Source of the DNA: a virus | Length of the DNA: 34,883 nucleotides | Virus record (IMG/VR): IMGVR_UViG_3300027833_000131 | Coordinates: 1 to 34,883 of that record | Strand: one strand, 5' to 3' | In this document: in pieces, positions 1 to 34,883 of the stretch | Layout: each line of letters opens with the position of its first letter | How positions within the stretch are numbered: position 1 is the stretch's first letter | Notes under the pieces: model-generated | Told to the model about the DNA's origin: nothing | Seen by the model: only the letters and a program-made list of their open reading frames with translations | Databases searched by the model: none | Made by a program: the position numbers and the translations under genes

Positions 1-914
1 ACAGTTCTGAGCCAGAAATGGACATGGAACCAGAAATGGACATGGAACCAGAAATGGACATGGAACCAGAAATGGACATGGAACCAGAAATGGACATGGA
101 ACCAGAAATGGACATGGAACCAGAAATGGAAGATGAAGAAGATGGTGTTATGTATGAAATCGCTTTAGATGAAGATGCTATTAGAACTGCAACAAGTGAC
201 ATCAACAAGTCAATGACTGGTGATTTAGCTAGTGGTGATATCGAAGGGCAAAAAGCTGATAAAGATGATGTGATTACTGGAGATAACTTAACTGGTGGTT
301 TTGATGATGATGCTGTAGCACATGCTAAGGCTGAAGGTACTATGGTTATGTCTGAAGATGAAGAATTAACTGAATTGGATGATGTTGAAGGTGATGCAAT
401 CGAAGAAAAAATCGGTAGTGGAACTGGGCATAGTGTTGGAAAGAATAGAAACGCTGATAATATGGGTGCACCAATGGGGCCTGGTATGAAAAACGAATCT
501 AAGGTAAAATACAATAAATTATTAACTGAAGCTAAAGCTCTTAAAGGTAAAAATGAAGAGTACAAGAAAACTCTTAAAAACTTTAGAACAATGTTAGCTG
601 AAACTGTAGTATTTAATTCTAACTTAACTTATGTTACTAAGTTATTTATGGAACACTCTACTACTAAGGACGAAAAAAGTGAAATTTTCAGAAGGTTTGA
701 TAATGAAGTTTCTACGCTTAAAGAGTCTAAAAAATTATACAAAACAATTGCCAGTGAATTAGGGAATAAAAAACCAATGAACGAATCAATTGAGAATAAA
801 ATTACTAAAGGAGCTACTTCTAGTTCATCTAAACAATTGAATGAATCAACTGTTTATGAGAACAATGAAAACTCAAGAATTAGAGACCTTATGAAAAGGG
901 TCGATAAAAGATAA
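1..914 (+). CDS. Prohead scaffold/core-like protein (5' partial)
   Basis: The reading frame is open from the first bases of the window (Ser-Ser-Glu-Pro-Glu before the first visible Met at 18), so the true start lies upstream. The visible part opens with six perfect MDMEPE repeats. A very acidic, low-complexity region follows, then a basic helical C-terminal half rich in Lys/Glu/Leu (from about base 490). It ends 34 nt before the gp23-family capsid gene. In T4 this place belongs to gp22, the main prohead scaffold, which is also acidic, helical and destroyed by the gp21 protease. A Leu-Thr-Glu/Ala site at 522-533 fits the gp21 cleavage rule (L/I-x-E before A/G). The scaffold role is inferred from position and composition, not from a recognised domain. 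Another head-core protein is possible. Confidence 0.55.
   Translation, partial: SSEPEMDMEPEMDMEPEMDMEPEMDMEPEMDMEPEMDMEPEMEDEEDGVMYEIALDEDAIRTATSDINKSMTGDLASGDIEGQKADKDDVITGDNLTGGFDDDAVAHAKAEGTMVMSEDEELTELDDVEGDAIEEKIGSGTGHSVGKNRNADNMGAPMGPGMKNESKVKYNKLLTEAKALKGKNEEYKKTLKNFRTMLAETVVFNSNLTYVTKLFMEHSTTKDEKSEIFRRFDNEVSTLKESKKLYKTIASELGNKKPMNESIENKITKGATSSSSKQLNESTVYENNENSRIRDLMKRVDKR
18..125 (+). repeat. 18-bp in-frame tandem repeat (6 copies)
   Basis: The unit atggacatggaaccagaa is repeated six times without mismatch and encodes MDMEPE. A partial copy (EPE) precedes it at the window edge. The perfect identity suggests recent expansion by slippage or recombination. It extends the acidic N-terminal region of the scaffold-like protein, and its total length cannot be known from this window. 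Confidence 0.95.
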
Positions 915-948: not shown

Positions 949-2727
949 ATGTCACATTTATTAAATTCTGGACAAGTCGGAAATATCGGGATTAACCACA
1001 TGAAGGAAATCCGTAGACAAACTCAATCAAAATGGGATTCTTTAGGATTCTTAGAGGGTCTTAAAGGTCACGTTAAAGAAAACGTTGCTCAATTATATGA
1101 AAACCAAGCGTCTTCATTATTAACTGAAACTACTAACGCTACATCTTCAGGTTCTTTCGAAACTGTTGTATTCCCTATCGTTAGAAGAGTATTCTCTAAG
1201 TTATTAGCTAACGACGTTGTTTCTGTACAAGCTATGAATATGCCAATCGGTAAATTATTCTTCTTCGTACCACAAACTTCTGAGAGAAATCCTGATGGAA
1301 CTCATACTGCTATGAACGGAATGTCTCAAGGTGCTCCAACTGAGGTTGCTTTACCACCTTGTATTGATTACACAGGTTGTGCTGTAACTGCTATGAAGGC
1401 TAAGAGTCTTTATGACCTTTACTACAACGATGGTTTATTTGACAACTCTAAAGGTGCTATATCATTAAGTACTGGTTCTGGTGAGTTACAAACTTTAGAT
1501 GAAAATGGTGTATTCGCATCTGCTTCTACTATTGGAGATTTACCAACTGCAACTGATGGTTCTTTAAGAGGTGCTATTGTTAAAGTAACTGGTTTTAACT
1601 CAATAAACAAAGGTAGATTAAACGGACCAGATGGTAACGAAATGGATACTGAAGCATTTATGGCTTCTTTAAAAGTAACTAACGAAAGTGGTGCTGCATT
1701 ATTAGACCAAGATGGAAAAATTATTGCTAAGGTTGGTGAAGCTATACCATTTAGATTAGTAACACAAGCTTACGGTAAAGGTATCGTAGCATATAATGAT
1801 ATTTGTGATGCTGAAGGTGCATTATATCTTGAAGTTGATTTAAGAAAGCCTGTAGATGCTGCTGGTACTGCAACTTATGATGGATATATCGGTGCTGACG
1901 TTGAAAATGGTCAAGAAGGTTTAGATGCTACTGCATTTGGAATTACTTGGGCAACATACGCTAGTCTTGAATTAGAAACTGAAATGGGAGAAGTATCTTT
2001 CAAACTTGATGAAGTTGTTGTTTCTGTTGAAGAAAGAAAATTAAGAGCTACATGGTCTCCAGAATTAGCTCAAGATGTTAGTGCATTCCACAACATCGAT
2101 GCTGAAGCTGAATTAACAGCAATGTTATCTGAGCAAGTAGCTGCTGAAATCGATAGAGAAATCTTGAGAGAATTAAGAAAAGGTGCTGCATGGCAATTAA
2201 GATGGGATTATAACGGATGGAGAAAAGCTTCTTCTGCTGCTAACCCTTATACACAAAAAGATTGGAACCAAACTTTAATCACTAAGATTAACCAAGTTTC
2301 GGCTCAAATCCATAAAACAACTCTTAGAGGTGGTGCTAACTTTATCGTTGTATCTTCTGAAATCTCTGCAATCTTTGATGATTTAGAATACTTCCACGTA
2401 AGTGATGCTAACCCAGAACAAGACCAATACAACATGGGTATTGAAAGAGTAGGTTCTTTATCTGGTAGATACCAAGTATATAGAGACCCATATGCTCCAG
2501 CAAACTCTGTAATTATAGGTCATAAAGGAAAATCATTGTTAGATACTGGTTACATCTACGCACCATACGTGCCAATGCAATTAACCCCTACAATGTTTAA
2601 CCCGTTCAATATGGCACCAGTAAAAGGTATCATGACGAGATATGCTAAGAAAATGGTAAATAACAGGTTCTACGGTCACGTAATGGTTGATGGAGTTCCA
2701 ACGTTTAACATTAACGAATTAAGATAA
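949..2727 (+). CDS. gp23: Major capsid protein, T4 gp23 family
   Basis: This 592-aa protein forms the hexamers of the T4-type head shell. The N-terminal part has the family signature: NQASSLLTE near residues 52-60, then FPIVRRVFSKLLANDVV and a PIGKLFFF segment. The C-terminal part keeps the HK97-fold region (YQVYRDPYAP, GYIYAPYVPMQLTPT, MTRYAKKMVNNRFYG). In T4 the prohead protease removes about 65 residues after an L/I-x-E site. Here L58-T59-E60 sits almost exactly at that position, so mature protein probably starts at T61. It is longer than T4 gp23 (521 aa), with extra sequence around residues 160-330 that could be a surface insertion. The start lies in an A/T-only leader without Shine-Dalgarno. 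Codon choice favours C-ending codons (AAC, TTC, TAC, ATC) more than its neighbours, as expected for a very highly expressed gene. Confidence 0.96.
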   Translation: MSHLLNSGQVGNIGINHMKEIRRQTQSKWDSLGFLEGLKGHVKENVAQLYENQASSLLTETTNATSSGSFETVVFPIVRRVFSKLLANDVVSVQAMNMPIGKLFFFVPQTSERNPDGTHTAMNGMSQGAPTEVALPPCIDYTGCAVTAMKAKSLYDLYYNDGLFDNSKGAISLSTGSGELQTLDENGVFASASTIGDLPTATDGSLRGAIVKVTGFNSINKGRLNGPDGNEMDTEAFMASLKVTNESGAALLDQDGKIIAKVGEAIPFRLVTQAYGKGIVAYNDICDAEGALYLEVDLRKPVDAAGTATYDGYIGADVENGQEGLDATAFGITWATYASLELETEMGEVSFKLDEVVVSVEERKLRATWSPELAQDVSAFHNIDAEAELTAMLSEQVAAEIDREILRELRKGAAWQLRWDYNGWRKASSAANPYTQKDWNQTLITKINQVSAQIHKTTLRGGANFIVVSSEISAIFDDLEYFHVSDANPEQDQYNMGIERVGSLSGRYQVYRDPYAPANSVIIGHKGKSLLDTGYIYAPYVPMQLTPTMFNPFNMAPVKGIMTRYAKKMVNNRFYGHVMVDGVPTFNINELR

Positions 2728-2746
2728 GAAATTATTTTATATAATT

Positions 2747-2779
2747 AAAAAGGATAACCAAAAGGTTATCCTTTTTTTT
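2747..2779 (+). terminator. Rho-independent terminator after the capsid gene
   Basis: A 10-bp stem (aaggataacc / ggttatcctt, 2750-2759 with 2764-2773) and a four-base loop are followed by a T run to 2779. It lies 20 nt after the capsid stop and separates the capsid gene from the next plus-strand gene. Confidence 0.92.
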
Positions 2780-2799
2780 GTTATAAACTATTTATAGAT

Positions 2800-3318
2800 A
2801 TGAGAAAGTTAATACAAAAATTATTAAAAGAAGGGTTATTAAATGAGAATCAAAAAATAACTGTTTATAGGGGTGCTGGTAGTCATTATGGTGAAGAAAT
2901 AAACCAAGGGATACTGTGGGTTAGCACATCTAAGGATTATGCTAAAATGTTCGCATCAAAAAATGATGATGGTACATTTAATATTGAAACTATTAATATG
3001 ATTAAACCAAATAAAACATTCCAATTCCCTTATAGTAACACTAGTCAACCAATTACTACTAATCAACTTATTAAAATTTTTAACAGGTTATTAGGTAATG
3101 CCATAAAAGAAATTAAATTATCTAAAGAAGATTATTTCAAAATAAAAAATATTATAAAAGAAATTAGTGATAAATTAGGTAATAGTGTTGAACCATTCCA
3201 ATCAAAAATTAATAACCCAATAGTTTCTAATAAAATTTCTAACCTTTTTAAACTTTTAGGGTATGAAGCTATAAAAGTTTCTGACGGTGATATAACCAAT
3301 TACGGTATTTTAAAATGA
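2800..3318 (+). CDS. ADP-ribosyltransferase-like protein with capsid-targeting-like N-terminus
   Basis: This 172-aa protein lies directly after the capsid gene terminator. Residues 20-51 read like the core of ADP-ribosyltransferase (ART) folds: KITVYRGAG with the NAD-binding Arg24, then the STS motif in LWVSTSKDYAKMFA (S42-T43-S44). A late LGYEAIKV segment (153-160) resembles the end of phage/PolyVal-type ARTs. The usual catalytic Glu near the C-terminus is not obvious, since NYGIL occupies that place, so activity is uncertain. The N-terminus MRKLIQKLLKEGL is a short basic amphipathic helix ending in L9-K10-E11/G12, a match to the T4 gp21 protease rule. This is how T4 Alt and internal proteins are packaged and processed. 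I infer an Alt-like protein injected with the DNA. The fold call is from motifs only. Confidence 0.5.
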   Translation: MRKLIQKLLKEGLLNENQKITVYRGAGSHYGEEINQGILWVSTSKDYAKMFASKNDDGTFNIETINMIKPNKTFQFPYSNTSQPITTNQLIKIFNRLLGNAIKEIKLSKEDYFKIKNIIKEISDKLGNSVEPFQSKINNPIVSNKISNLFKLLGYEAIKVSDGDITNYGILK

Positions 3319-17320: not shown

Positions 17321-18358
17321 TTATTTATTAAAACGTTTGTAAGAGTTACCTGAAATGATAACTAGTTCTGTGTTGTTTCTAAATTCATCTAATGTTAATG
17401 CACCAGCATAACTCATAGCTGAACGTAAGTAGTGTTCAAAGTTATTAACCCAACCATCAATAGTGTATTCAACTTTTCTAAATCTAACAACACCTTCTGA
17501 TGTTTTAAGTATTTTACTACCCCATTTTTTTTGCACCTCTTTAGTAGACATACCTCTAAATTTTTTATAAACATTACCACCTAACTCATAATATTTATTA
17601 GCACCATTTTGAGTTATTTTAATTTTCTTTAAAATGTAATTTTGCCCACAAGATTCTAAACATTTATTTAAAATACTACCTAACATAACATAATCAGCAC
17701 CTAATGCAATAGCCTTAATGATATCTGAATAAGTTTGCATACCACCGTCAGCTACAATCTTAGCGGGTTTATCTAATTTAGATGATTCACTGTAACATTC
17801 GGCTATTAACGATGCCATAGGGTATCCTACACCCGTTTGTTGGGTTGTTAGACAACCTCCACCATTACCGATACCAACTCGTATTAAATCAGCACCAGCT
17901 TCAGATAACTTAACATAAGTCTTTGGGTTAGCTATATTACCAACCATAAGTGTTAAATCTTCATACTTACTTTTAACATACTTAACAGTGTCAACTAAAT
18001 CTGATATATGACCATTAGCTATGTCTATTAAAATATTTAAATTAGCAGTTTGATTATCAACCATAAACTTATTGTTACAGAACTTATCTTTAAAATCACT
18101 AAGTGAATAAGATGTGAACCCACCTAAGTCTGATTTCTCACCTCTAGGTAAACAAACATTAAGTCCGTTAAAATAAAATAAACCTTCATTATCACTACTA
18201 ACTACAGTATCCATAGGGGCGGTAAATAAAGGTAACATGTCATTATCATCATCAATATTTATTTCAGACCTACTTTTAATACTCGTAAGTGTTTTTGGTT
18301 TAATTAATAAATCGTTAAAATCTAATTTATTTGGACTTCTTAATATATTTTCTTTCAT
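17321..18358 (-). CDS. IMP dehydrogenase / GMP reductase family enzyme
   Basis: This 345-aa TIM-barrel enzyme links IMP and guanine nucleotides. Visible motifs: FNDLLIKP near the N-terminus, FTAPMDTVVS (45-54), the catalytic loop GIGNGGGCLTTQQTGVGYP with Cys169, the phosphate site IVADGGMQTYSDIIKAIALGA (201-221) with LGS, and a flap-like FRGMSTKEVQKKWG followed by SEG. There is no CBS domain, and the length equals bacterial GMP reductase (about 345 aa); TGVGYP and the RS..SYAGA C-terminal segment also favour GMP reductase. It lacks the usual Pro-Gly-Ser before the Cys loop. Specificity remains open. In phage context it may recycle host guanine nucleotides. It lies 5 nt downstream of the dUTPase gene. 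Confidence 0.85.
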   Translation of the reverse strand: MKENILRSPNKLDFNDLLIKPKTLTSIKSRSEINIDDDNDMLPLFTAPMDTVVSSDNEGLFYFNGLNVCLPRGEKSDLGGFTSYSLSDFKDKFCNNKFMVDNQTANLNILIDIANGHISDLVDTVKYVKSKYEDLTLMVGNIANPKTYVKLSEAGADLIRVGIGNGGGCLTTQQTGVGYPMASLIAECYSESSKLDKPAKIVADGGMQTYSDIIKAIALGADYVMLGSILNKCLESCGQNYILKKIKITQNGANKYYELGGNVYKKFRGMSTKEVQKKWGSKILKTSEGVVRFRKVEYTIDGWVNNFEHYLRSAMSYAGALTLDEFRNNTELVIISGNSYKRFNK

Positions 18359-20902: not shown

Positions 20903-21490
20903 CTATCTTTTAGTTTTTAACTTACCTTCTTTAATTAATGTGTTAATTGTTTTCTTAATGACACCTTCAGTTAAATTTTTACTATAATCTACAGTTAAGA
21001 ATTCTAATAAAACATCCTTTATTATCCCCCTTAAAACTGTTTCACTAACAGTTATTTTATCATTATTCATAACCACATTTTCATTAATACTATGTGTACC
21101 ACTTGGTTGTTGATAACCCCTACCATGTGCTGAAGGTGTTGGTAGGGGTTTTTCAATTAAATCCTCCATACCTTCTAAACCATGATTTAAACTAACTGGT
21201 TGTGGTGGATTATTTAACATCATTTGTTTAACAGAATCTGGTAATTTAGAATTTTTAATAGCAGACTCATCAATATGAGCCATATTCCTAGTAGGGTCAG
21301 TATAATTCCCAGACACTTGGTGATTACTTGGCATGTTATTTTCACTTAGATAACCATCAGTGTTTTGCCTCAATTTACTTCCATCAAGATTACCACCTTG
21401 AAAGTTGTTATCAGTTTTTATTATTTTTTTAGCATTACTTAAGATACCTTTTAATCTACTTAAGTCAGCTGGCATTGGCATTTGATTCAT
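20903..21490 (-). CDS. Hypothetical, Gln/Asn-rich protein (195 aa)
   Basis: The protein starts MNQMPMPADLSRLKGILSNA, is rich in Asn/Gln/Pro/Gly in its middle (for example PPQPVSL and GRGYQQPSGTHS), and ends in two helical segments: 'VSETVLRGIIKDVLLEFL' and 'NLTEGVIKKTINTLIKEGKL'. 'KLPDSVKQMMLNNP' is a motif I recall from T4-like head and core proteins. L-T-E/G and I-K-E/G match the T4 prohead protease rule, so head processing is possible. It is the last gene of a five-gene minus-strand block and is followed by a strong terminator. No catalytic domain is seen. Confidence 0.55.
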   Translation of the reverse strand: MNQMPMPADLSRLKGILSNAKKIIKTDNNFQGGNLDGSKLRQNTDGYLSENNMPSNHQVSGNYTDPTRNMAHIDESAIKNSKLPDSVKQMMLNNPPQPVSLNHGLEGMEDLIEKPLPTPSAHGRGYQQPSGTHSINENVVMNNDKITVSETVLRGIIKDVLLEFLTVDYSKNLTEGVIKKTINTLIKEGKLKTKR

Positions 21491-21503
21491 AATATTATAT
21501 TTT

Positions 21504-21896
21504 TTAAAACGTTACATAATTTTGTAAGTTACCACCCATCATTGAGCCATCTTTAGGTCCGACATAATCTGGTATATCTTCCCCACCACTTACTTTATTA
21601 ACAGGCTTTTGAAATTTGAAGTTTGTTGCTTCAATTTTACTTATATTATTAACTAATAATGTTTTCCACTTAGCATTTTCAGAATTAGTTCCACCAAATG
21701 CTTGAAAAACCCTTATGATTTGGTTACCCGCCTTACTTGTACCCATACCATAAATAAATACGTATTTTTTAGTTAAGTTATTACCCTTTTTATCGGTATA
21801 CCAAACATTTACAGCGTATTTACCCTCAATAGCATCAATAATACTATTGACATTGTTCTCTAATATAAGGTTTTCATATATATTGTAAAGTTTCAT
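21504..21896 (-). CDS. WYL-like domain small protein (130 aa)
   Basis: It begins MKLYNIYENLILENNVNSII. After that the pattern 'IDAIEGKYAVNVWYTDKKGN', 'KKYVFIYGMGTSKAGNQIIRVFQAFGG', then 'WKTLLVNNISKIEATNF' follows the WYL-like beta-barrel found in nucleic-acid-binding regulators and also in phage proteins ('gtsKaGN.iiRafq..g......WK.frvd.I'). The C-terminal part is Gly/Asp-rich and disordered. It lies 14 nt before the preceding gene of the block. Whether it is a regulator or a structural protein cannot be told. It may bind a nucleic acid or nucleotide ligand. Confidence 0.5.
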   Translation of the reverse strand: MKLYNIYENLILENNVNSIIDAIEGKYAVNVWYTDKKGNNLTKKYVFIYGMGTSKAGNQIIRVFQAFGGTNSENAKWKTLLVNNISKIEATNFKFQKPVNKVSGGEDIPDYVGPKDGSMMGGNLQNYVTF

Positions 21897-23348: not shown

Positions 23349-25451
23349 ATGGCATTTAGAACAAAATTAGATTATTCTGACGGTAGACAGATAAAACAAA
23401 GGGAAGGTACATTGACACAACTTTCTGGTGGAACTATTTTCGGTGTTTCAATTGATGACCTAGAAAGTGGGCCAGACCTTAGTACTAGTGCGTTAACAGA
23501 AGAATACTATTCTGTTATTAGTACTTTCTCTGGTGATTCTCAGTTGACGGTTATTAATTGGTATGATTCTAGAATGGAATTGTTAAATGACCAAATAATA
23601 CCACTAACCCCATCAAATAGTGGGGACACACAAGATTTATTGGTTCAATTCACCCCAGATAATTCAATAATAGTTGATGGTAATGAAGTTAATTTATCAT
23701 ACTTGGGTGTTGAATTTAATTTAGTAGCTGATACAATGACTGATAATGGTGGGACATACACTGGTACTATAATACATGAAGATTTATTTTTCTATAGTGC
23801 GGACACACTTGATTATACAGGTAGAACTATATGGGTAGATAATACAGAAATAACTAGAACGGATAGATTAATAATTAAAAATGAACCTCAAGTAGGTCAT
23901 GTCTTCACTTGTATAGATTCAGAAGGTATGGGTGCTTGGTTACCTGGTGGAACTGGTGGTAATTCGTTATGGGAATATAGTAATGGTATTTTATCATTGG
24001 TTCCGTTTAACTCCACAAATATCGCTAGTGGTGATAATTCCTTTGCAATAGGTTCTGGAACACAGGCTTTAGGTGATAACTCTTACGCACAAGGTTTAGA
24101 TACAATAGCTAGTGGTAATAGTGCACATGCTGAGGGTGTTACAACACAAGCATTAGGGGATAATTCACATGCACAAGGTAGTCAAACAATTGCGGATTCA
24201 ACAGCGTCACATGCTCAAGGTGCTCAGTCAAGAGCCTTAAATATTGCTGCACACGCACAAGGTTTTGATACATTAGCGAGTGGTGAAGCAGCACATAGTC
24301 AAGGGGCTAGAACTCAAGCGATAGGTAATAACTCACATTCTGAAGGTCAAGATACAATAGCTAGTGGTAATAGTTCACATGCTGAAGGTAGATTTTCAAA
24401 ATCAATAGGTGTTTCATCACACGCTCAAGGGTTTAATACTAGAGCCTTTGGTGATTTTTCACATGCTGAAGGGGATGGTGTATCAACATTTGGTTTAGGT
24501 TCACATGCTGAGGGTGGTGAGACAATCGCTTATGGTGATTTATCACACGTACAAGGTTTTAGAACAGAAGCTAGTGGATTTACAGCACATGCTGAAGGGT
24601 TTCTATCTAAGGCTAATGGTGACCAAAGCCATGTTGGTGGTTTTAATAGTACTGTTGAATCAGAAACTGGGTTTATACACTCAAGAAGCTCTTTATTAAC
24701 CATTAATGCTATAAATTCAGCAATACTAGGTGGTGTTGCTATTACTGGTGACTCAGCAAACACTGTTTACGTACCAGATTTAATTATAGATGGTTTAACA
24801 TCTGTTACTGATTTACAAACAGACGCTGATGGTAGGTTGGTTGATGGTGTTTCAGATGTTTCTTTAAAAGAAAATATTAAAACAATAGAATCAGCATTAG
24901 ATAAAATTAAAAAATTAAGAGGTGTATCTTTTGATTGGACTGAAGAATCTAACATGGGTGAAGGTATAAACTTTGGTTTGATTGCTCAAGAAGTTAACGA
25001 AGTCATACCAGAAATGGTGAAAACTATAAGGAAAAATGAAGGTAAATTAACTTTAGATTATAAATCTATAATACCTTGGTTAATTGAGGCTATAAAGGAA
25101 CTTAGTTCGGATGATTTAGAAAGTAACACAATAATAAAAAGTCAAACAATAACATCAGAAGATAATAATATAATTTTAAATTTTAATGGAACACATGAAT
25201 CTTCATTAAATGGTGGTATTGTTGTTAATAAAGGTATAAACTCATCTGATAATTCACAATTTATAATTAATTCTGATGGTGATTGGTTTACTAATAATTA
25301 TATAATCCCATATGGTTTAACAATACCCGAATACACACCAACTTCATCATATGATGATAGTGGTAAGATAGGGGAAATAACTAGAGATGATAACCATATT
25401 TATATTAAGACAAATAGTGGTTGGAAAAGAAGTAATTTAACAGAATTTTAA
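23349..25451 (+). CDS. Tail fibre/adhesin with YadA-type repeats and S74 chaperone domain
   Basis: This 700-aa fibre has four parts. Residues 1-240 form an N-terminal attachment region (MAFRTKLDYSDGRQIKQREG, LSGGTIFGVS) of a kind I associate with T4-like phage fibres. Residues 245-440 are 14 units of 14 residues with SHAQG/SHAEG-type cores, as in the YadA head, which folds as a trimeric left-handed beta-roll. At about 500-585 lies an intramolecular chaperone peptidase S74-type domain: VSDVSLKENI with Ser502 and Lys507 at the spacing of the endosialidase Ser-Lys dyad, then FGLIAQEVNEVIPEMV and LDYKSIIPWLIEAIKEL. Self-cleavage before Ser502 is expected. About 115 further residues follow, ending GWKRSNLTEF, which is unusual because S74 domains normally end the chain. 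Confidence 0.85.
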   Translation: MAFRTKLDYSDGRQIKQREGTLTQLSGGTIFGVSIDDLESGPDLSTSALTEEYYSVISTFSGDSQLTVINWYDSRMELLNDQIIPLTPSNSGDTQDLLVQFTPDNSIIVDGNEVNLSYLGVEFNLVADTMTDNGGTYTGTIIHEDLFFYSADTLDYTGRTIWVDNTEITRTDRLIIKNEPQVGHVFTCIDSEGMGAWLPGGTGGNSLWEYSNGILSLVPFNSTNIASGDNSFAIGSGTQALGDNSYAQGLDTIASGNSAHAEGVTTQALGDNSHAQGSQTIADSTASHAQGAQSRALNIAAHAQGFDTLASGEAAHSQGARTQAIGNNSHSEGQDTIASGNSSHAEGRFSKSIGVSSHAQGFNTRAFGDFSHAEGDGVSTFGLGSHAEGGETIAYGDLSHVQGFRTEASGFTAHAEGFLSKANGDQSHVGGFNSTVESETGFIHSRSSLLTINAINSAILGGVAITGDSANTVYVPDLIIDGLTSVTDLQTDADGRLVDGVSDVSLKENIKTIESALDKIKKLRGVSFDWTEESNMGEGINFGLIAQEVNEVIPEMVKTIRKNEGKLTLDYKSIIPWLIEAIKELSSDDLESNTIIKSQTITSEDNNIILNFNGTHESSLNGGIVVNKGINSSDNSQFIINSDGDWFTNNYIIPYGLTIPEYTPTSSYDDSGKIGEITRDDNHIYIKTNSGWKRSNLTEF
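24081..24668 (+). repeat. 14 x 42-bp degenerate YadA-type repeat array
   Basis: Fourteen in-frame units of 42 bases with no length change encode 14-residue units around SHAQG or SHAEG. Each unit is diverged at DNA level, so the array is old compared with the near-identical one at 33626-34882. Confidence 0.9.
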
Positions 25452-33334: not shown

Positions 33335-34883
33335 ATGGCTTTAAAAAGATTTTATAATAATATATACACTGGTTTATTAACAGATTTACCAGTTAGTGGG
33401 ACATCTGGAACATTAGTAGTGATTGAAGATTCAAAACTACTTTACGCTTACGGTGATGATAATTTACCATTTTTAATATCATCTAGTGGTAGTACTAGTG
33501 GTGGAACTTCTTTATGGGAAAGTGGGGTTGGTTTGAATTCTTTAGTCACAAAAAACAGTTTTAACATATCTAGTGGTGATTATTCATTATCTGAAGGTCT
33601 TGGTAATTCATCTATTGGTAAATATTCACATGCTGAAGGTGTTGAAACAATAGCTAGTGGTGATGCGTCACATGCTGAGGGATATGGTACAATAGCAAGT
33701 GGTAAAAGGTCACATGCTGAAGGTTTTAGTACAATAGCTAGTGGTGATACGTCACATGCTGAAGGGTTAAGGACAACCGCTAGTGGTGTTGAATCACATG
33801 CTGAAGGTAATGGTACAACGGCTAGTGGTAATAGGTCACATGCTGAGGGTAGTCAAACAACTGCTAGTGGTATTGCTTCACATGCTGAGGGTGGTAGTAC
33901 AACGGCTAGTGGTGATGGTTCACATGCTGAAGGGGCACAAACAAGAGCTATCGGTAATGGGTCACATGCTGAGGGTGGTGATTCTGAATCTAGTGGTGAT
34001 TATTCACATGCTGAAGGTTTAAGTACAATAGCTAGTGGGGAAAATTCACATGCTGAAGGTAGTAGGTCAATAGCTAGTGGTGATAACTCACATGCTGAAG
34101 GTGTAGGTACAACAGCTAGTGGTACTTCATCACATGCTGAGGGTGAAAGTACTGTAGCTAGTGGTGATTATTCACATGCTGAAGGTAATGATACAACGGC
34201 TAGTGGTATTGCTTCACATTCTGAGGGTGTGCAAAATGAATCTAGTGGTTTAGCGTCACATGTGGAAGGTAGGTTAAATTCATCCATTGGTGATTATTCA
34301 CATGCTGAGGGTAATGATACAATAGCAAGTGGTAATAGTTCGCATGCTGAAGGTATATTTACAAGGGCTATTGGTCAATCATCACACGCTGAGGGTGGTA
34401 GTACAACGGCTAGTGGTCAATCATCACACGCTGAGGGTAGTAGAACAACAGCTACTGGTGATTATTCACATGGTGAGGGTGAAAGTACTGTGGCTAGTGG
34501 TTTAGGTTCACATGCTGAAGGTAGTTTTACAACGGCTAGTGGTGATTTTTCACATGCTGAAGGTGGTAGGTCAAGAGCTAGTGGTAATAGTTCACATGCT
34601 GAAGGTAGTTCAATCGCTATTGGTAATTATTCACATGCTGAGGGTGAAAGTACTGTAGCTAGTGGTGATACGTCACATGCTGAGGGTTATGAAACAATAG
34701 CTAGTGGTGATTATTCACATGCTGAGGGTGAAAGTACTGTAGCTAGTGGTGATACGTCACATGCTGAGGGTTATGAAACAATAGCTAGTGGTGATTATTC
34801 ACATGCTGAAGGTAGGGGTGCAACAGCTAGTGGTTTCGTATCACATGCTGAGGGTAGAAATGTAGTCGCTAGTGGTGATTATT
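33335..34883 (+). CDS. YadA-type repeat adhesin/tail fibre (3' partial)
   Basis: ATG at 33335 lies two bases after the preceding stop and the frame stays open to the window end (516 codons), so the C-terminus is missing. The N-terminus reads MALKRFYNNIYTGLLTDLPV, then 'LVVIEDSKLLYAYGDDNLPF' and a Ser/Gly-rich linker to GGTSLWES, a segment shared with the 23349 fibre (GGNSLWEY). From residue 98 on it is 30 SHAEG-type 14-residue units, expected to form a trimeric left-handed beta-roll. An S74-type chaperone may lie beyond the edge, by analogy with the first fibre. An open frame of 79 codons in another phase over the array is a shadow. Confidence 0.85.
   Translation, partial: MALKRFYNNIYTGLLTDLPVSGTSGTLVVIEDSKLLYAYGDDNLPFLISSSGSTSGGTSLWESGVGLNSLVTKNSFNISSGDYSLSEGLGNSSIGKYSHAEGVETIASGDASHAEGYGTIASGKRSHAEGFSTIASGDTSHAEGLRTTASGVESHAEGNGTTASGNRSHAEGSQTTASGIASHAEGGSTTASGDGSHAEGAQTRAIGNGSHAEGGDSESSGDYSHAEGLSTIASGENSHAEGSRSIASGDNSHAEGVGTTASGTSSHAEGESTVASGDYSHAEGNDTTASGIASHSEGVQNESSGLASHVEGRLNSSIGDYSHAEGNDTIASGNSSHAEGIFTRAIGQSSHAEGGSTTASGQSSHAEGSRTTATGDYSHGEGESTVASGLGSHAEGSFTTASGDFSHAEGGRSRASGNSSHAEGSSIAIGNYSHAEGESTVASGDTSHAEGYETIASGDYSHAEGESTVASGDTSHAEGYETIASGDYSHAEGRGATASGFVSHAEGRNVVASGDY
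33626..34882 (+). repeat. 30-unit near-perfect 42-bp YadA-type repeat array (runs to edge)
   Basis: Twenty-nine units of exactly 42 bases and one of 39 (starting 34592, SHAEGSSIAIGNY) fill the stretch without interruption. The core tcacatgctga(a/g)ggt is almost invariant, while residues 6-8 and the last two of each unit vary. The low divergence contrasts with the older array at 24081 and suggests recent growth by recombination. Confidence 0.95.
34631..34798 (+). repeat. Perfect 84-bp tandem duplication inside the array
   Basis: Bases 34631-34714 (two units) are repeated exactly at 34715-34798. This two-unit copy without a single change is the clearest footprint of a recent expansion event, or it could be an assembly artefact. 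Confidence 0.95.

What the first reader, a model, noticed from the sequence alone, without database searches (positions are those of the whole stretch)
2800..3318. Possible capsid-packaged ADP-ribosyltransferase (Alt analogue) beside the capsid gene
Seen: a VYRG and an STS motif in ART-like order, and an N-terminus with L9-K10-E11/G12 that fits the T4 gp21 processing rule. Known: T4 Alt is an ART delivered with the DNA after processing of a targeting peptide. Inference: this small protein is a packaged, injected host-modifying effector. The catalytic Glu is not obvious, so it may be a divergent or inactive ART.
Basis: partly seen in the sequence, partly recalled or inferred. Interest (0 to 1): 0.75.

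Follow-up and report, generated by a model that had tools for sequence, protein, structure and literature searches.

The report
Possible capsid-packaged phage effector with tag
The gene next to this phage's capsid gene carries an 11-residue N-terminal tag that uncultured T4-like phages put on dozens of unrelated proteins, which suggests it is loaded into the virus head and injected; whether the protein itself is an ADP-ribosyltransferase remains unproven.

Summary
The strongest result is the N-terminus, MRKLIQKLLKE|G. In 81 loci anchored on related capsid genes, this 11-mer pattern occurs 17 times at protein N-termini and twice internally, against 0.03 in shuffles. All 17 genes start 72-3473 bp downstream of the capsid gene, and their mature parts are mostly unrelated. 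It ends like the T4 vertex protein gp24 propeptide (MAKINELLRE|S), whose 10 residues gp21 removes. The gene has its own late-promoter-like TATTTATA and follows the capsid terminator. I therefore infer a capsid-targeting propeptide on an exchangeable cargo gene.

The enzyme claim is weaker. VYRG (22-25), GILWVSTS (37-44) and GYEAIK (154-159) follow ART order, but no Pfam, PDB or profile test places the protein in an ART family, and the AlphaFold2 model is poor (pLDDT 47). Confirmed ART-PolyVal proteins do carry the same tag in other phages (L275, L120; Pfam E 1e-12, 1e-11); the L275 model (pLDDT 88) matches the anti-CRISPR ART AcrIF11.

Verdict: a tagged, probably packaged effector (likely); ART-like (about even odds); target unknown. 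The tag system looks like an undescribed variant of the T4 capsid-targeting sequence.

The parts
18..914 (+). Prohead core/scaffold-like protein (gp22 position) upstream of the capsid gene
   Evidence: Acidic repeats and several L-x-E sites (KLLTE, QLNE), immediately upstream of the MCP as gene 22 is in T4; no convincing PHROG hit. Assignment inferred from position and composition.
949..2727 (+). T4 gp23-like major capsid protein; candidate propeptide cleavage SLLTE60|TTN (nt 1128/1129)
   Evidence: PHROG 138 E 3.3e-67; the SFLTE|AEI site region of T4 gp23 corresponds.
2748..2779 (+). Terminator-like hairpin AAGGATAACC-AAAA-GGTTATCCTT followed by a T run, presumably ending the capsid transcript
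   Evidence: Read directly from the sequence.
2789..2796 (+). TATTTATA, late-promoter-like element just upstream of the cargo gene
   Evidence: TATTTAT[AT] occurs 330 times in the 60 nt upstream of 1137 genes of the related loci against 27 expected.
2800..3318 (+). The cargo gene, 172 aa, pI 9.5
2800..2832 (+). N-terminal tag MRKLIQKLLKE (residues 1-11), inferred capsid-targeting propeptide; cleavage expected between E11 and G12
   Evidence: T4 gp24 parallel (and PMC9958956).
2833..3315 (+). Inferred mature effector, 161 aa, 18.2 kDa, pI 9.3
   Evidence: the cleavage is inferred.
2863..2874 (+). VYRG (residues 22-25), putative ART strand 1 (R24)
   Evidence: aligned with YHG of ART-PolyVal by hhalign.
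2908..2931 (+). GILWVSTS (residues 37-44), putative ART strand 2
   Evidence: L078 has GIIWLSAD at the same place.
3259..3276 (+). GYEAIK (residues 154-159); E156 is the candidate acidic catalytic residue
   Evidence: identical GYEAIK in the Pfam-confirmed ART of L120.

Best explanation
This is an exchangeable cargo gene of a T4-like phage. It is transcribed late from its own promoter. Its first 11 residues form an amphipathic helix that targets the protein into the prohead core and is then removed by the gp21-type prohead protease after E11. The 161-residue basic remainder stays in the head with the DNA and is injected at infection. The mature domain is most likely a diverged ADP-ribosyltransferase-like fold that modifies a host take-over or defence target before phage genes are expressed. 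Shown here: the shared N-terminal tag, its position next to the capsid gene, the promoter-like element, and true ARTs with the same tag in other phages. Inferred: targeting, cleavage, packaging and injection. Only suggested: the ART fold of this protein. Unknown: its activity and target.
For: Tag: 17 N-terminal against 2 internal occurrences in 1280 genes, shuffle mean 0.03; all 17 start 72-3473 bp downstream of the MCP, a zone holding 27% of genes, P about 2e-10 if independent. At least 70 largely unrelated proteins carry it (only I5 and E11 invariant across 71 proteins), and 165 unique ones after a second scan. Codons vary while residues hold, so it is conserved as peptide, not DNA. Hydrophobic moment is in the top 2% of shuffles. 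T4 gp24 starts MAKINELLRE|STTT, and its 10-residue N-terminal peptide is removed by gp21 (PMC9958956). The T4 IP tag MKTYQEFIAE|A was confirmed in the record, and 10 residues suffice for targeting (PMC9026906). Late-promoter-like element. ART with tag: L275 PF18760 E 1.7e-12 and L120 1.7e-11; the L275 model has pLDDT 88 with a low-confidence N-terminus, and Foldseek finds AcrIF11 (6kyf), MbcT and PARPs. Window protein: best relative is the YRG...GIIWLS protein L078 (E 0.0015); hhalign to phage ART-PolyVal has P 0.0011 with YRG/YHG and WVSTS/WFTT in register; secondary-structure order parallels L275.
Against: No Pfam, NCBIfam or PDB match of note; the ART profile gives only 4.1 bits and the L275-family profile 0.2 bits, rank 514 of 1567. 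The AlphaFold2 model is poor (46.8) and its fold search finds no ART. Orphan gene: one near-identical strain only. Virion presence is untested. In the one virion proteome checked, phage CBB, the homologue of the L275 ART (CBB_455) is not listed. Some tagged proteins (glucosaminidase, tRNA nucleotidyltransferase) are odd capsid cargo. A generic L-x-E|[SAGTN] site near N-termini is not significantly enriched downstream of the capsid gene (p 0.18), so cleavage rests on the specific tag.
Confidence: 0.55

Rival explanations
1. The protein is a capsid-targeted, cleaved internal head protein, but the mature domain is not an ADP-ribosyltransferase (another small effector or a DNA-binding internal protein like T4 IPII/IPIII).
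For: All direct ART tests fail or are inconclusive. The mature protein is small and basic (pI 9.3), as T4 internal proteins are. The tag is carried by many non-ART domains: GNAT, kinase-like, ParB-like, nucleotidyltransferase.
Against: Three motifs in ART order and spacing, a weak in-register profile match, and the best detectable relative shares YRG...GIIWLS.
Confidence: 0.3
2. The N-terminal peptide is not a capsid tag but another shared feature, such as a docking helix for a phage factor, a membrane-binding helix, a stability signal or a translation-friendly start.
For: Tagged proteins include endolysin-like and tRNA nucleotidyltransferase domains, and many tagged genes were fetched without showing that they lie near head genes. 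Only 25 of 49 tagged contigs showed Gp23, although most are fragments. The residue after E is often E, unusual for gp21.
Against: In the capsid-anchored set every tagged gene lies just downstream of the capsid gene. The tag ends exactly like the processed gp24 propeptide of T4. Homologues of the tagged ART have different N-terminal helices that mostly also end in [LI]-x-E. It is conserved at peptide level, not codon level.
Confidence: 0.2
3. Spurious or decayed ORF without function.
For: No homologues; known from one near-identical strain only.
Against: Intact 172-aa frame, late-promoter-like element, terminator before it, and an N-terminal tag shared with many other genes in the same position.
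Confidence: 0.04

Closest known systems
T4 internal head proteins IPI/IPII/IPIII and their capsid-targeting sequence
   Same: About 10-residue N-terminal peptide shared by otherwise unrelated small basic proteins, ending in an E at which gp21 cuts; variable cargo among related phages (PMC9026906).
   Different: The peptide sequence differs (M[KR]xLIKKLLRE against MKTYQEFIAE); here the cargo is far more diverse and includes recognisable enzymes; processing is not shown.
T4 Alt
   Same: Proposed role: ART packaged in the head, processed at the N-terminus and injected; R...STS order resembles the R-S-E clade.
   Different: Much smaller; no E-x-E motif; no sequence relationship found; target unknown.
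ART-PolyVal (PF18760), domain of polyvalent proteins
   Same: Y[HR]G, a G-x-[FWL]-[WF]-x-[ST]-T-like strand and GY[DE]-[GA]-I in the same order; bona fide members carry the same tag (L275, L120).
   Different: R instead of H in strand 1; no profile match; C-terminus ends before the conserved NP..I stretch.
T4 gp24 vertex protein propeptide
   Same: MAKINELLRE|S ends in LLRE followed by a small residue, as the tags do; removed by gp21.
   Different: gp24 is a shell protein, not an injected effector.
AcrIF11, an anti-CRISPR ADP-ribosyltransferase
   Same: Second-best structural match of the tagged ART of L275; shows that phage ARTs can disarm host defence.
   Different: Not known to be packaged; no relation to the window protein was detected.

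Membership tests
T4-type capsid-targeted internal proteins | Short N-terminal peptide shared by unrelated proteins | tested here: met
   17 N-terminal against 2 internal; 71 proteins aligned with only I5 and E11 invariant.
T4-type capsid-targeted internal proteins | Peptide ends in a gp21-type site, (L/I)-x-E followed by A/S/G | tested here: met
   L9-K10-E11|G12; parallels T4 gp24 LLRE|S. Sequence rule only.
T4-type capsid-targeted internal proteins | Late expression and linkage to head genes | tested here: inconclusive
   Linkage met: 72 nt after the capsid gene. Late expression only suggested by TATTTATA at 2789-2796; expression was not measured.
T4-type capsid-targeted internal proteins | Sequence match to the T4 tag MKTYQEFIAE | tested here: not met
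   Little in common beyond the start and the final E. Hence 'works like', not the same tag family.
T4-type capsid-targeted internal proteins | Cognate gp21-type prohead protease in the same phage | tested here: inconclusive
   The contig starts inside the head cluster, so upstream genes are missing; in the related cultured phage immuto the annotated protease lies upstream of the capsid gene.
T4-type capsid-targeted internal proteins | Truncated protein present in virions | not testable with these tools
   Needs mass spectrometry.
ART-PolyVal (PF18760) | Match to the family profile | tested here: not met
   No Pfam ART hit up to E 10; own ART profiles 4.1 and 0.2 bits.
ART-PolyVal (PF18760) | His in strand 1 (H-Y-D active site, PMC5512222) | tested here: not met
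   R24 in VYRG.
ART-PolyVal (PF18760) | Acidic residue at GY[DE]-[GA]-I | tested here: met
   E156 in GYEAIK, as in L120. That this acid is the strand-5 catalytic residue is my reading, not shown.
Alt/VIP2 (R-S-E) ADP-ribosyltransferases | R in strand 1 and S-T-S in strand 2 | tested here: inconclusive
   R24 and S42-T43-S44 are present, but the strand assignment comes from a low-confidence model.
Alt/VIP2 (R-S-E) ADP-ribosyltransferases | E-x-E catalytic motif | tested here: not met
   No E-x-E in the mature protein (acidic residues listed).
ADP-ribosyltransferase fold in general | ART fold in a confident model | tested here: inconclusive
   pLDDT 46.8, pTM 0.42; fold search without ART hits cannot be read at that confidence.

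The most novel reading that the evidence does not exclude
A large group of uncultured T4-like phages, probably of Bacteroidota, uses a general 11-residue cleavable address tag, M[KR]xLI[KR]KLLRE, to load dozens of interchangeable enzymes (ARTs, acetyltransferases, kinases, nucleotidyltransferases and others) into the head and inject them, with the gene next to the capsid acting as a cargo slot. The window gene is one such cargo.
Probability: 0.5. Interest if true: 0.85.

Novelty: new variant of a known kind. Interest (0 to 1): 0.62.

Why it matters
If the tag is a capsid address, a simple N-terminal search lists injected effectors in uncultured phages without proteomics. Many of those listed are unannotated and likely to act in the first minutes of infection, before the phage makes anything. 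It would also give a second capsid-targeting sequence beside that of T4, testable with fusion proteins, and a source of phage host-take-over and counter-defence enzymes, including Pfam-confirmed ADP-ribosyltransferases.

Tried and rejected
Direct homology searches of the protein: Pfam, NCBIfam and PDB gave no credible match, and tblastn against phages none. Weak PHROG hits (phrog_2579 ParB C-terminal, E 0.0012; phrog_28204) were not pursued, as the local scores are near noise. Relatives by peptide or DNA patterns in IMG/VR and in GTDB genomes: only the same gene and L078; 54 genome hits read by eye, none an ART or relative. Treating it as a member of the L275 ART family: rejected by profile score. 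Structure of the window protein: low confidence, fold search uninformative. An alignment of the window protein with ART-PolyVal for a second model misaligned the C-terminus, so it was not used. A generic L-x-E|small-residue census near N-termini was not discriminating. A short tblastn with the tag against cultured phages found nothing, but the query is too short to be informative. A search for a published description of such a tag outside T4- and phiKZ-type phages found none in the held library.

Full report
Observation. The ORF at 2800-3318 (+) is intact, 172 residues, and starts 72 nt after the stop of a T4 gp23-like capsid gene. Between the two genes lie a terminator-like hairpin with a T run (2748-2779, read) and a TATTTATA box (2789-2796). 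In the related loci TATTTAT[AT] occurs 330 times in the 60 nt upstream of 1137 genes against about 27 expected, mostly 10-30 nt before the start. In the window it also precedes tail or structural genes. It is thus a promoter-like element, probably late. The simple count of TATTTATA over the whole window is at chance; it is the position that is informative.

The N-terminal tag. Capsid relatives in IMG/VR gave 80 loci with flanks. In these plus the window (1280 non-nested genes, 373,558 residues) the pattern [LIVFHM]I[KRQ][KRQI][IL][LI][KR]E occurs 17 times within the first residues of a protein and twice elsewhere; shuffling N-termini gives 0.03. All 17 genes start 72-3473 bp downstream of the capsid stop, a zone with 27% of the genes. 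The pattern was written after seeing a few examples, and two of the 17 are copies of one gene, so the exact P value should not be over-read; the contrast with internal occurrences is the point. Across 71 aligned carriers only I5 and E11 are invariant and M1 and L9 nearly so; nothing after the tag is shared by all. Codon choice varies while the residues hold, so the conservation is in the peptide. Carriers match GNAT acetyltransferases, kinase-like, ParB-like, tRNA nucleotidyltransferase, glucosaminidase, polynucleotide-kinase-like and ART families, and several sit in tandem.

Why a capsid tag. T4 gp24 begins MAKINELLRE|STTT, and gp21 removes its 10-residue N-terminal peptide (PMC9958956): the same L-L-R-E ending before a small residue. 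T4 gp23 has SFLTE|AEI where the window capsid protein has SLLTE|TTN. T4 internal proteins carry a tag of which 10 residues suffice for targeting (PMC9026906), and their mature parts vary among related phages. Among homologues of the tagged ART in L275, N-terminal helices differ (MKQLIKKLLRE, MKLNNLFTEILNE, MGLSISELLNE, MIKIYDLYKTIIQE, MEMKKLMEDISAIMEG) while the ART core is conserved, and those helices mostly end in [LI]-x-E. In the L275 model residues 2-18 have low confidence, unlike the rest. Twenty-five of 49 tagged contigs, mostly fragments, encode Gp23, and 15 of the 19 that exceed 150 kb (counted). I had no random-contig control for that fraction.

What does not fit. A glucosaminidase and a tRNA nucleotidyltransferase are unexpected head cargo. 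After the tag's Glu, E is the commonest residue in the wider set, whereas gp21 prefers A/S/G; the capsid-adjacent set has mostly S, N, G, E, T and A. The general L-x-E site is not enriched enough to discriminate. CBB_455, the homologue of the L275 ART in phage CBB, is not in the list of 55 virion proteins (PMC5259590), though that list need not be complete. Hence packaging is inferred, at roughly 75%.

Is it an ADP-ribosyltransferase? For: V-Y-R-G, G-I-L-W-V-S-T-S and G-Y-E-A-I-K in that order; the best relative found, L078, repeats YRG...GIIWLS (phmmer E 0.0015 in 4724 ORFs). Profile comparison with seven phage ART-PolyVal domains has P 0.0011 and puts YRG on YHG and WVSTS on WFTT. The order helix, strand, strand, helix, strand, long helical insert, strands of the weak model parallels the L275 ART. 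L120, a GNAT plus ART-PolyVal protein with the tag, has the identical GYEAIK. Against: no Pfam ART hit, 4.1 and 0.2 bits with ART profiles, pLDDT 46.8, no ART in its fold search. The active site would be R-S-E-like, but without E-x-E, and unlike the H-Y-D of ART-PolyVal (PMC5512222). I give the ART fold about 55%, catalytic activity less.

A positive case. L275 shows that the combination of tag and ART exists: PF18760 at 48.7 bits (cut-off 31.2), model pLDDT 88, and structural matches to a protein in a cyanophage A4 pre-ejectosome entry, the anti-CRISPR protein 6kyf, MbcT and many PARPs. 6kyf is AcrIF11 (my knowledge; PMC12421852, found, describes AcrIF11 as an ADP-ribosyltransferase and mentions that entry). 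So a packaged ART could act on RNA polymerase, as Alt does, or on a defence complex, as AcrIF11 does. For the window protein the target is open.

Host and record. The window is a 34.9-kb virus record; a near-identical strain exists as a 51-kb record (24 differences in 13.3 kb). Among the closest cultured capsid relatives are Flavobacterium phages, so a Bacteroidota host is likely but not shown.

Verdict. The packaging inference is strengthened and broadened into a shared tag on many cargo proteins, which I found described nowhere outside T4- and phiKZ-type systems in the held library (a limited search). The ART inference stays unproven for this protein.

Noticed in passing
window 21504-21896 (-) and L011, L031, L015 just downstream of the capsid gene: A second N-terminal type, MKL-x-x-I-[YF]-x-x-[LI]-[LI]-x-E, closer to the T4 tag MKTYQEFIAE; six cases against 0.65 expected in shuffles.
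   Followed up: partly
L049, L050, L060, L079, L080 and others, within 2 kb downstream of the capsid gene: A further recurrent N-terminus of the form L-I-N-E-D-E-K-x-R-I-L-x-L-H-E-x-x-T-K-x-Q-Y-L-x-E on different proteins; may be another cargo tag.
   Followed up: no
L004, L017, L019, L030 downstream of the capsid gene: Another recurrent N-terminus, roughly D-K-x-K-x-x-x-K-A-N-L-L-A-E-x-x-Y-L-x-x-K-x-L-x-x-E.
   Followed up: no
window 20903-21490 (-), C-terminus; also N-termini in L040, L066, L078, L082: The string ITVSETVLRGIIKDVLLE in the C-terminal part resembles the recurrent I-x-x-[TN]-E-[ST]-x-[LI]-x-x-[LI]-[IV]-K-x-[VL]-[LV]-x-E at N-termini elsewhere; T4 Alt is also processed at its C-terminus (PMC9026906).
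   Followed up: no
L290, L292, L293 (ORFs of 1160-1407 aa): The L275-type ART core is embedded in very long ORFs, as expected for polyvalent proteins.
   Followed up: no
window 23349-25451 and 33335-34883 (+): Long SHAEG repeats like YadA-type adhesin heads; the first contains a stretch resembling the S74 tail-spike chaperone (from the translations; names from memory).
   Followed up: no
window 17321-18358 (-): Protein resembling IMP dehydrogenase/GMP reductase inside a structural-gene region, next to a dUTPase-like gene (from the translations; names from memory).
   Followed up: no
1137 genes of the capsid-anchored loci: TATTTAT[AT] as the presumed late promoter, 330 observed against 27 expected upstream of genes, peak 20-25 nt before the start.
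   Followed up: partly
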